From Leptolyngbya ohadii IS1 (GTDB lineage: Bacteria > Cyanobacteriota > Cyanobacteriia > Elainellales > Elainellaceae): a stretch of 64,000 bases of DNA. The notes under the pieces are model-generated. The model worked only from the letters and a program-made list of their open reading frames with translations. It did no database searches and was not told the origin of the DNA. Made by a program: the position numbers and the translations under genes. Numbering within the stretch: the stretch's first letter is position 1; every line of letters begins with the position of its first letter. Of this stretch, positions 33,328-35,622 are shown piece by piece. The stretch covers positions 3,687,080 through 3,751,079 of the forward strand of contig NZ_NKFP01000006.1 in the NCBI RefSeq assembly GCF_002215035.1, given 5' to 3'.

Positions 33328-33445
33328 GATCGTAATGATTTGATCGTAATATTTGCGATTGCCGTACTGCGCTTATCGTGACAGTGGCGATCGTGATGCC
33401 TTGCCCAGTCAGTTCTGACAGAACGGCACTCTAGCGCTGCGGATC

Positions 33446-33625
33446 TTAGCGGAAACGGCGCTTCCGGCGTGCCATGACTGCTTTACGCTTGCGCTTCTCT
33501 AATGGCGTCTCGAAGTGGCGATGGCATTTGACATCTGCCAGAATACCCGCCTTGGATACCTGCCGCTTAAACCGACGCAGGGCTGATTCAATTCCTTCGT
33601 TTTCTCCTAGGACCACTTGGGTCAT
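33446..33625 (-). CDS. rpsU: 30S ribosomal protein bS21
   Basis: This encodes 59 residues on the minus strand: [20 protein letters not shown], then [20 protein letters not shown] and a basic C-terminus ([16 protein letters not shown]). Length, charge and the [13 protein letters not shown] motif identify bS21, which helps mRNA and 16S rRNA pair at initiation. AAAAGGAG lies just upstream of the ATG (33625), and the bidirectional terminator at 33303-33327 ends the transcript. Immediately upstream (33788 onwards) the DNA changes to the murF palindrome. Confidence 0.96.
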
Positions 33626-33787
33626 GCTTACTGCTCCTTTTCTAAGATGTGAATGGGGTCAACAAGAGAATTAGGGGTAAGACGATCGAATCACTATCCG
33701 GGAAAACTGACGTAATTTGGACAGACAGAATAATTCCTGCGTAACCATTCCTCGTCAGCCGAACAACGATGACTGCGATCGCTGCTA

Positions 33788-34288
33788 GACGGGCAATCTG
33801 GGTGAGCAGCGCAATTTCTCCTGCCGCCCGCATCCCCATCTCCACCACTGCAAAGTTATGGTCGGGCGTGAGTTCCAGCAGCGTTTTTGGGACACCAATC
33901 TCGTTGTTATAGTTCGCCTGGGTTTTGAGTACCTTTCCCTGCGTCGCTAAAACTGCCGCAATCAGTTCCTTCGTTGTCGTCTTGCCTACCGAACCCGTTA
34001 CCGCAATCACCGGAATCGAAAACTGCTGCCGCCACCATTGCCCGATCGTCTGATATGCCTGAAGCGCATCCTTCACCACGAGCAGCGGTAAACTCAGCTT
34101 GACAGAATCCCCGACGGGAGGCTTATCCGTAACAGCCGCGATCGCTCCCTGTGCCTGAGCTACCGCCAGGTAATCATTGCCGTCAAACCGCTCTCCCCGC
34201 AGCGCCACAAACAAATCGCCGGACTGCAAACTGCGGCTATCCGTGCTGATCCGAATTGGATGCTGATGCCGCACGGTCTCCAACCCGA
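33788..34288 (-). pseudogene. murF: Inverted, truncated copy of murF (left arm of palindrome)
   Basis: The minus strand from 34288 to 33788 is base-for-base the same as the plus strand from 34289 to 34789, so it encodes the same ~165 residues of MurF (STDSRSLQSGDLFVAL through the P-loop GSVGKTTTKEL to MGMRAAGEIALLTQIAR). Past the junction at 33788 the frame continues into unrelated residues and stops at 33642. It lacks a start codon, the middle and C-terminal domains, and therefore has no MurF activity. Confidence 0.9.
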
Positions 34289-34789
34289 TCGGGTTGGAGA
34301 CCGTGCGGCATCAGCATCCAATTCGGATCAGCACGGATAGCCGCAGTTTGCAGTCCGGCGATTTGTTTGTGGCGCTGCGGGGAGAGCGGTTTGACGGCAA
34401 TGATTACCTGGCGGTAGCTCAGGCACAGGGAGCGATCGCGGCTGTTACGGATAAGCCTCCCGTCGGGGATTCTGTCAAGCTGAGTTTACCGCTGCTCGTG
34501 GTGAAGGATGCGCTTCAGGCATATCAGACGATCGGGCAATGGTGGCGGCAGCAGTTTTCGATTCCGGTGATTGCGGTAACGGGTTCGGTAGGCAAGACGA
34601 CAACGAAGGAACTGATTGCGGCAGTTTTAGCGACGCAGGGAAAGGTACTCAAAACCCAGGCGAACTATAACAACGAGATTGGTGTCCCAAAAACGCTGCT
34701 GGAACTCACGCCCGACCATAACTTTGCAGTGGTGGAGATGGGGATGCGGGCGGCAGGAGAAATTGCGCTGCTCACCCAGATTGCCCGTC
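33788..34789. repeat. Perfect 1002-bp palindrome (two 501-bp inverted arms, no spacer)
   Basis: The axis lies between 34288 and 34289 in CAACCCGA|TCGGGTTG. I compared the ends directly: plus CCCGTC at 34784-34789 mirrors minus GACGGG at 33788-33793, and the next bases differ (C against T). The coding content of both arms is identical for 165 codons. Just outside the ends both flanks share CGATCGCAGT, offset by 3 bp. Such a spacerless palindrome is either a fold-back rearrangement or an artefact of amplification or assembly. Confidence 0.93.
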
Positions 34790-35622
34790 CAACGATCGCA
34801 GTGATTACCAATGTGGGCACGGCGCATATCGGAAGATTGGGTTCGGAGCAGGCGATCGCAGATGCTAAGTGTGAGCTTTTAGCGGAAATGCCTGAGGGGG
34901 GAATCGCAATTTTGAACCACGACAATCCGCGCCTGATGGACACAGCCGATCGGTTGTTTGCAGCCAAAATGGAAGCAGATAAGATCTGGGCAGGCAAAAT
35001 GATTTCCTATGGGCTGACGGGGGGCGATGTCTGGGGGAAAATGGTGGATGCTTCAACGCTGGCAGTCAATGATATGAAGTTCCCGTTGCCGCTGCCAGGA
35101 CAGCACAATGCCCTTAACTATCTGGCGGCTCTGGCAGTGACAAAAGCGCTCAATCTCCCCTGGGAACCGCTTCAGCAGGGCATCACCGTGGATCTGCCGC
35201 AGGGACGGGCACGCCGCATGACCTTACCAGGCGATATTTTGATGCTGGATGAAACCTACAATGCCGGATTGGAATCCATGATTGCTGCGCTGCACCTGCT
35301 GGCGCAAACTCCCGGAGACCGCCGGATTGCCGTTCTGGGCACCATGAAAGAACTGGGCGATCGATCGCCGGAATTCCATCATCAGGTGGGAGCCGTGGTG
35401 CAGCAGCTTGGCTTGGCTTGTTTGCTCATTCTGGCAGACCCACAAGAAAGCGAAGCCCTGGCAGCCGGAGCTTCCCCCGTACCGACAGAGCAGTTTAACA
35501 GTCATGAAGCGGTCATCGATCGGCTCAAGGCGATCATGCAGCCAGGCGATCGAATCCTGTTGAAGGCATCCCGTGCGGTCGGACTCGATCGCGTGGTGGA
35601 GGGCTTGCTCCAGACCGTTTGA
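34294..35622 (+). CDS. murF: UDP-MurNAc-tripeptide--D-Ala-D-Ala ligase, 5' end lost at palindrome axis
   Basis: The enzyme adds D-Ala-D-Ala to the cytoplasmic UDP-MurNAc-tripeptide. Visible parts are ISTDSRSLQSGDLFVALRG, the ATP loop VTGSVGKTTTKELIAAVL, NNEIGVPKTLLEL, HIGRLGSEQAIADAK and, in the C-terminal domain, MLDETYNAGLESM. The first possible initiation codon (TTG 34294, 442 codons) gives a protein short by perhaps 15-30 residues compared with other MurF enzymes; the frame reads upstream only to a TGA at 34264 and has no ATG. The lost segment coincides with the palindrome axis. If the sequence is right, this gene lacks its own start and promoter, which is surprising for an essential function. 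Confidence 0.85.
   Translation: METVRHQHPIRISTDSRSLQSGDLFVALRGERFDGNDYLAVAQAQGAIAAVTDKPPVGDSVKLSLPLLVVKDALQAYQTIGQWWRQQFSIPVIAVTGSVGKTTTKELIAAVLATQGKVLKTQANYNNEIGVPKTLLELTPDHNFAVVEMGMRAAGEIALLTQIARPTIAVITNVGTAHIGRLGSEQAIADAKCELLAEMPEGGIAILNHDNPRLMDTADRLFAAKMEADKIWAGKMISYGLTGGDVWGKMVDASTLAVNDMKFPLPLPGQHNALNYLAALAVTKALNLPWEPLQQGITVDLPQGRARRMTLPGDILMLDETYNAGLESMIAALHLLAQTPGDRRIAVLGTMKELGDRSPEFHHQVGAVVQQLGLACLLILADPQESEALAAGASPVPTEQFNSHEAVIDRLKAIMQPGDRILLKASRAVGLDRVVEGLLQTV

What the first reader, a model, noticed from the sequence alone, without database searches (positions are those of the whole stretch)
33788..34789. Perfect 1-kb spacerless palindrome that decapitates murF
Seen: plus-strand 34289-34789 is mirrored exactly by 34288-33788, with the axis in CAACCCGA|TCGGGTTG. 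The full-length murF begins at the axis and has no ATG; it lacks about 15-30 N-terminal residues, and its upstream region is a reversed copy of itself. A short native palindrome (CCCGATCGGG) at the axis is where a strand could fold back and prime. Both outer flanks contain CGATCGCAGT near the breakpoint. Either the genome has a fold-back duplication that leaves an essential gene without its normal start, or the sequence has an amplification or assembly chimera here.
Basis: partly seen in the sequence, partly recalled or inferred. Interest (0 to 1): 0.75.

Follow-up and report, generated by a model that had tools for sequence, protein, structure and literature searches.

The report
False palindrome from genome assembly
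A perfect 1-kb mirror-image sequence that beheads a cell-wall gene is really in the database record, but it is one of many similar scrambled patches in this cyanobacterial assembly and is almost certainly a product of sequencing or assembly, not of the living cell.

Summary
The closest relative, FACHB-502, has the normal locus: bS21 gene, 284 nt (murF upstream region and, by its likely ATG, codons 1-17), murF. The window has lost those 284 nt and carries an inverted copy of murF instead. The lost stretch has no DNA match elsewhere in the genome; murF is single-copy.

The palindrome is not unique. In 1.96 Mb sampled of this 7.9-Mb genome, 42 pairs of exact inverted arms of 40 nt or more lie at 17 places, 8 pairs spacerless; at the same settings there are none in 400 kb of the relative and none in 674 kb of 80 relatives' murF loci. 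Of six places compared with the relative, five lack a gene end (one weakly), including the HELGH motif of an RseP-type protease. Joins often share 10-13 nt. The assembly has N-runs, some inside a 16S gene at a contig end.

Best reading: a draft-assembly artefact, by gap filling with inverted local sequence or by amplification chimeras. A real fold-back duplication is unlikely, but no reads were available to exclude it.

The parts
33788..34288 (-). Inverted copy of murF codons ~18-184 (left arm of the perfect palindrome); stands where FACHB-502 has the 284-nt murF upstream region and codons 1-17
   Evidence: 100% complementary to 34289-34789; FACHB-502 has different sequence here
34289..34789 (+). 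Native murF segment (right arm of the palindrome)
   Evidence: collinear with FACHB-502 murF
34284..34293 (.). Axis, 10-nt palindrome CCCGATCGGG; FACHB-502 has TCCGATTCGGA at the homologous place
   Evidence: sequence; homologous quasi-palindrome
33788..33790 (.). GAC shared by the native left flank (CTAGAC) and the inverted murF copy at the outer junction
   Evidence: left flank aligns to FACHB-502 through L043:3711, window 33790
33772..33781 (+). ACTGCGATCG in the left flank, 6 nt outside the arm; its reverse complement lies at 34793-34802, 3 nt outside the other arm. A gapped ~19-nt overlap could have made the join (inference)
   Evidence: positions; BLAST extends the inverted match to 33769-34805, beyond the exact arms
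34294..35622 (+). Decapitated murF: best start codon left is a TTG; 442 aa, matches NCBIfam TIGR01143 murF
33642..34283 (-). Chimeric 213-aa ORF: murF N-terminal part read through the outer junction into the left flank; not a gene
33446..33625 (-). Ribosomal protein bS21 (rpsU) gene of the normal left flank, 59 aa
   Evidence: PF01165, E 6.2e-21; aligned to relatives

Best explanation
The palindrome is a draft-assembly artefact. The true genome almost certainly has bS21 gene - about 280 nt (murF upstream region, start codon, first ~17 codons) - murF. That short native stretch was not recovered, and the hole was bridged by the adjacent 0.5 kb of murF in reverse orientation, joined on one side through the near-palindrome at the axis and on the other through a short or gapped match (ACTGCGATCG...GAC). 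Shown: the exact palindrome, the missing segment, its absence elsewhere in the assembly at DNA level, and 16 similar places in 1.96 Mb. Inferred: that the bridging was done by gap-filling software, perhaps on a library of about 500-bp inserts (about 0.6), or by chimeric molecules from whole-genome amplification (about 0.3). In either case the living cell would have an ordinary murF.
For: 42 pairs of exact inverted arms (>=40 nt, spacer <=5 kb) at 17 places in 1.96 Mb sampled; with the same settings 0 in 400 kb of the relative G001 and 0 in 80 related murF loci, 674,093 bases. A looser BLAST comparison of those 80 loci gave 15 inverted matches, the best 92.3% identical. In G000 that comparison gave 40 matches, 29 at 95-100%; by my reading only 4 lie outside the 17 places, at 76-87%, so no graded series of older copies was seen. 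Lost segments without DNA match elsewhere: 284 nt at murF, 467 nt at an rseP-type gene, replaced by scrambled inverted pieces of both flanks. Five of six places compared lack a gene end, one of them weakly. Four of 42 arms are 499-513 nt, none longer. 23 of 45 positive junction overlaps, or 18 of 35 distinct ones, are 10-13 nt. N-runs of 261 and 361 nt, and 44 short N-runs inside a 16S gene near the end of contig C4.
Against: No raw reads or assembly report could be seen, so the process is inferred. The exact shared sequence at this outer junction is only 3 nt (GAC), below the 10-13 nt common elsewhere, unless a gapped overlap with ACTGCGATCG is counted. Turning back at native short palindromes is also what a polymerase would do. 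Cluster 15 has arms broken by scattered mismatches, and 14 of 35 distinct overlaps are under 10 nt. One of six compared places (leucyl aminopeptidase) shows no gene loss. The 220 kb read on contig C1 showed no such place, so they may not be evenly spread.
Confidence: 0.93

Rival explanations
1. Chimeras from whole-genome amplification by a strand-displacing polymerase (MDA): displaced 3' ends re-primed on the nearby opposite strand at short matches, and such molecules dominated low-coverage spots. This is one form of the artefact reading, and its probability is part of the 0.93 given there.
For: In one study 85% of 475 MDA chimeras were inverted with an intervening deletion (PMC1855051, abstract and passages). 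Segment distances peak at 80-280 nt, over 95% of overlaps are 3-13 nt, and after correction for available sites overlaps of 12-13 nt are preferred (PMC5372508, passages). The places here show inverted neighbours, lost intervening sequence and short overlaps.
Against: Uncorrected published overlaps peak at 7 nt and 6 nt (PMC4595205, passages), whereas 18 of 35 distinct overlaps here are 10-13 nt; this is not decisive. Each place needs at least two switches that return to the flank. There is no information that this DNA was amplified.
Confidence: 0.3
2. A real fold-back duplication in the chromosome: the nascent strand turned at CCCGATCGGG, copied murF backwards for about 500 nt and rejoined the left flank, deleting the murF start; murF is expressed poorly from a TTG, or intact copies persist in a polyploid cell.
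For: A near-palindrome at the homologous point of the relative and a short match at the outer junction are what template switching predicts. An alternative TTG start exists. Cyanobacterial polyploidy (recalled) could mask the damage.
Against: Many such events would have to be present with near-identical arms; murF (single-copy) and an rseP-type gene (copy number not tested) have lost N-terminal parts that have no DNA match elsewhere. None was found in the sampled 400 kb of the relative. Long palindromes are unstable in E. coli (recalled; PMC3315005 seen only as a search listing with the start of its abstract).
Confidence: 0.05
3. A programmed inversion or regulatory switch of murF.
For: None beyond the inverted structure itself.
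Against: Recombinase genes and sites were not looked for. But the arm is plain murF coding sequence, the other places adjoin unrelated genes, and the 80 related loci have an ordinary start.
Confidence: 0.01

Closest known systems
Misassembly or false gap filling at scaffold gaps of short-read drafts
   Same: Missing native sequence, replaced by near-identical local sequence joined by short overlaps; N-runs elsewhere in the assembly; many places in one genome
   Different: Program and library are unknown; I found no paper describing inverted filler of this form in the one search made for it
MDA (phi29) inverted chimeras and palindromic reads after whole-genome amplification (PMC1855051, PMC5372508, PMC4595205: passages; PMC6218980, PMC13265396: listing and start of abstract only)
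   Same: Inverted neighbours, intervening deletion, short overlaps
   Different: Overlaps here centre on 10-13 nt rather than 6-7; no arm exceeds 513 nt; amplification not documented
In vivo fold-back template switching / tandem inversion duplication at quasi-palindromes (named from recall and search listing)
   Same: Axis at a native near-palindrome, short match at the outer junction, deleted spacer
   Different: Many near-identical events in one genome, with loss of gene ends, and none in the sampled part of the relative

Membership tests
Draft-assembly artefact | Recurs at many unrelated places of the same assembly | tested here: met
   42 pairs at 17 places in 1.96 Mb
Draft-assembly artefact | Absent from close relatives assembled independently | tested here: met
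   0 pairs in 400 kb of G001 and 0 in 80 loci, 674,093 bases, same settings
Draft-assembly artefact | Native sequence that the cell should have is missing | tested here: met
   murF; rseP-type gene
Draft-assembly artefact | Raw reads contradict the join | not testable with these tools
   No reads available
MDA chimera | Inverted join with intervening deletion | tested here: met
MDA chimera | Overlap lengths as published (peak 6-7 nt; over 95% at 3-13 nt; 12-13 nt preferred after correction) | tested here: inconclusive
   18 of 35 distinct overlaps at 10-13 nt, 14 below, 3 above,
MDA chimera | DNA was amplified before sequencing | not testable with these tools
In vivo fold-back / tandem inversion duplication | Axis at a native quasi-palindrome | tested here: met
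   L043 TCCGATTCGGA; the palindrome at C6:3779401-3779992 has its axis in ATCGATCGAT, and the relative reads ATCGATCG there. Axes of the other six spacerless pairs were not compared
In vivo fold-back / tandem inversion duplication | Compatible with a living cell | tested here: inconclusive
   murF start and the rseP-type N-terminus have no other DNA copy in the assembly, but a TTG start or unassembled copies could rescue; essentiality is recalled, not tested
In vivo fold-back / tandem inversion duplication | Present in genomic DNA by PCR or unamplified long reads | not testable with these tools
   -

The most novel reading that the evidence does not exclude
The lineage really carries dozens of recent fold-back duplications made by template switching at short palindromes (often CGATCG-type, which are frequent here), tolerated because the cell is polyploid and keeps intact copies that the assembly left out.
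Probability: 0.04. Interest if true: 0.75.

Novelty: not a real feature. Interest (0 to 1): 0.12.

Why it matters
As biology it probably does not. It matters as a quality warning: this assembly is rated 100% complete with 0.58 contamination, yet the sampled part carries about nine scrambled places per Mb (17 in 1.96 Mb), some of which behead genes. Claims about palindromes, gene loss or new ORFs from it need checking. A scan for long near-perfect local inverted repeats is a cheap screen for the same fault in other drafts.

Tried and rejected
Chance origin: rejected. A second murF or the missing 5' end elsewhere: not found; the next MurF-like hit in G000 is 29% identical over residues 12-378 and I read it as another Mur ligase. 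A murF that never had a longer N-terminus: rejected, 80 of 80 related loci have the ATG. RNA element in the window: no Rfam match at gathering score. A lineage-wide palindrome: only one other genome of the genus is held, and it is normal. A size ceiling as proof of a ~500-bp insert library: only suggestive, because I chose the 499-513 bin after seeing the arms. A search for FACHB-502 papers gave none. A search for inverted repeats as gap-closing artefacts gave 8 papers, none of which by title and abstract start was on this, so the gap-filling route rests on inference. Which program made the fills was considered from memory only and is not claimed.

Full report
Observation. Window 33788-34288 and 34289-34789 are 501-nt arms, 100% complementary, with no spacer. 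In the whole window the only other inverted pair found at 40 nt or more (seed 14) is 52 nt at 77%, 51 kb apart. Base-shuffled copies of the window gave longest zero-spacer arms of 6-11 nt in 20 trials. The window is G000:C6:3687080-3751079 of a 7,902,459-base genome in 8 contigs.

What the locus should look like. The closest relative found is Cyanobacteria bacterium FACHB-502 (L043). G001, the only other genome of the genus held, is taken to be the same record: its murF locus L004 (4,308 bases) lies letter for letter inside L043 and the contig lengths agree. In L043 the left flank of the window aligns from window 33394 to 33790 (L043:3310-3711, ending CTAGAC), and murF aligns from window 34308 on (L043:4015). 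Carried on without gaps, window 34289 corresponds to L043:3996, so 284 nt (L043:3712-3995) lie between the two flanks in the relative. They hold the murF upstream region, the likely ATG at L043:3941 and 17 codons. In the window that stretch is replaced by the inverted copy of murF. Searching the whole genome with L043:3690-4060 gave 28 matches: the two arms at the axis, 18 nt of the left flank, and 25 weak ones of 15-33 nt. murF itself is otherwise single: apart from the true gene and its inverted arm, the G000 hits are 29-32% identical. The left flank gene is bS21 (PF01165).

Consequence for murF. The frame upstream of residue 12 is open for 20 codons and has no ATG; the TTG at 34294 is the start that the ORF finder takes. 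All 80 related loci examined have an ATG 27-32 codons upstream of the same point (80 kept of 220 found). The gene therefore looks beheaded by about 17-20 residues and has lost its upstream region.

Not a single event. I read 1.96 Mb of G000 in stretches (plus the window), 1.42 Mb of it on C6, 220 kb each on C1 and C4, and 20 kb each on the other five contigs, and scanned for exact inverted repeats of at least 40 nt with a spacer up to 5 kb. There are 42 pairs, which I grouped by hand into 17 places (15 on C6, 2 on C4, none in the C1 stretch or the small contigs); 8 pairs at 8 places have no spacer, with arms of 64, 69, 72, 158, 176, 296, 501 and 513 nt. With the same settings there are 0 pairs in 400 kb of G001 and 0 in 80 relatives' loci of 674,093 bases. 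At the G000 rate about 3.5 and 5.8 places would be expected there (my arithmetic). A looser BLAST self-comparison (inverted matches of 50 nt or more within 6 kb) gave 40 in G000: 12 at 100%, 17 at 95 to under 100%, 11 below 95%; 0 in the 400 kb of G001; and 15 in the 80 loci, the best 92.3%. Of the 11 lower ones in G000 I place 7 inside the 17 places, where alignments run past the exact arms, and 4 outside, at 76-87%. Cluster 15 (C6:4009831-4011883) and, less so, cluster 16 (C6:4021298-4022059) have real scattered mismatches between copies.

Anatomy of the other places. Besides the 42 inverted pairs, 18 direct repeat pairs of 40 nt or more lie within the places (counted by me); inverted partners are up to 1,022 nt apart. 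At C6:2987411-2988868 G001 is collinear on both sides, with 467 nt in between. G000 has instead short inverted pieces of both flanks, from within about 0.55 kb of the gap, and the 467 nt have no counterpart elsewhere in G000 better than E = 0.09. The neighbouring RseP-type protease lacks residues 1-51 of 364, including HELGH, while NtcA on the other side is complete. At C6:3936966-3937660 an Orn/Lys/Arg decarboxylase lacks residues 369-495 of 495; at C6:3779401-3779992 a lipoate-ligase-like protein lacks 1-30 of 257; at C6:2942477-2943261 a DUF218 protein lacks its last 14 of 278, which is weak evidence. At C6:3879752-3881697 the leucyl aminopeptidase is complete (residues 12-515 of the relative's 517-residue ORF). 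With murF that is five of six compared places; the other 11 were not compared. At C6:2942477 the two flanks map to different G001 contigs, and near C6:3779401 and C6:3936966 the G001 contig also changes within several hundred bases of the place, so wrong joins or true rearrangements between the species may be mixed in.

Junction statistics. Repeat blocks within places abut or overlap. Of 77 listed contacts 45 are positive overlaps, 23 of them 10-13 nt; counted as distinct sequences, 18 of 35 are 10-13 nt, 14 shorter, 3 longer. Many of the 32 zero or negative contacts come from single mismatches in cluster 15, the nine zeros include the spacerless axes, and two of the long overlaps come from ordinary short tandem repeats beside places 8 and 15. 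Published MDA chimeras have an overlap peak at 7 nt (PMC5372508, passages) or 6 nt (PMC4595205, passages), but the first also reports that, corrected for available sites, 12-13 nt overlaps are preferred, so the lengths do not decide between software and polymerase. The longest arms are 499, 501, 508 and 513 nt; this suits a ~500-bp library, but I chose that bin after seeing the data. At the murF place the exact shared sequence at the outer junction is only GAC, with ACTGCGATCG a few bases further out on both sides; BLAST bridges the two. This fits a gapped overlap by software and equally an imperfectly annealed 3' end.

The assembly. Sampled G000 contains 182 runs of N: 136 in the first 20 kb of C3, 44 in the first 1.7 kb of C4, and one run each of 261 nt in C2 and 361 nt in C6. 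The C4 runs (618-1725) lie inside a 16S rRNA gene (560-2052), and the contig begins inside the neighbouring 23S gene. The operators may mask stretches as N, so the long runs alone prove little; the scattered single Ns look like unresolved consensus of rRNA copies. This is consistent with a scaffolded draft whose contigs break at repeats.

Mechanism. The evidence supports an artefact with about 0.93 confidence. The more likely route is filling of a scaffold gap by local sequence in reverse orientation; amplification chimeras are the main alternative form. The axis at a native near-palindrome (TCCGATTCGGA in L043) is explained by either route, since a palindrome lets a strand or an overlap turn back on itself. 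A real fold-back is left at about 0.05, because it would require many near-identical events and the loss of gene starts that have no other copy in the assembly.

Verdict. As biology the finding is of low interest; as a warning about this assembly it is useful.

Noticed in passing
G000:C6:3879752-3881697 (L150/L151/L235): Chain of a 389-nt inverted repeat and a 513-nt spacerless palindrome (axis CTCGATCG|CGATCGAG) beside a leucyl aminopeptidase gene.
   Followed up: partly
G000:C6:3779401-3779992 (L145:19402-19993): Second clean spacerless palindrome, 296-nt arms, where a lipoate-ligase-like gene lacks its first 30 residues.
   Followed up: yes
G000:C6:2987411-2988868 (L245): Scrambled patch between ntcA and an rseP-type protease gene that lacks its HELGH motif.
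   Followed up: yes
G000:C6:4009831-4011883 (L157): Patch with many direct and inverted repeats broken by single mismatches about every 35 nt, unlike the perfect arms elsewhere; could be a native repeat gene or an error-rich fill.
   Followed up: no
L133:765-12436 (G000:C3) and L134:618-1725 (G000:C4): Dense scattered single Ns; the C4 stretch lies inside a 16S rRNA gene near the contig end. The C3 stretch was not identified.
   Followed up: partly
G000, 1.96 Mb sampled: CGATCG occurs 4.5 times per kb and GCGATCGC 0.62 per kb, so short palindromes suitable as turning points are common.
   Followed up: no
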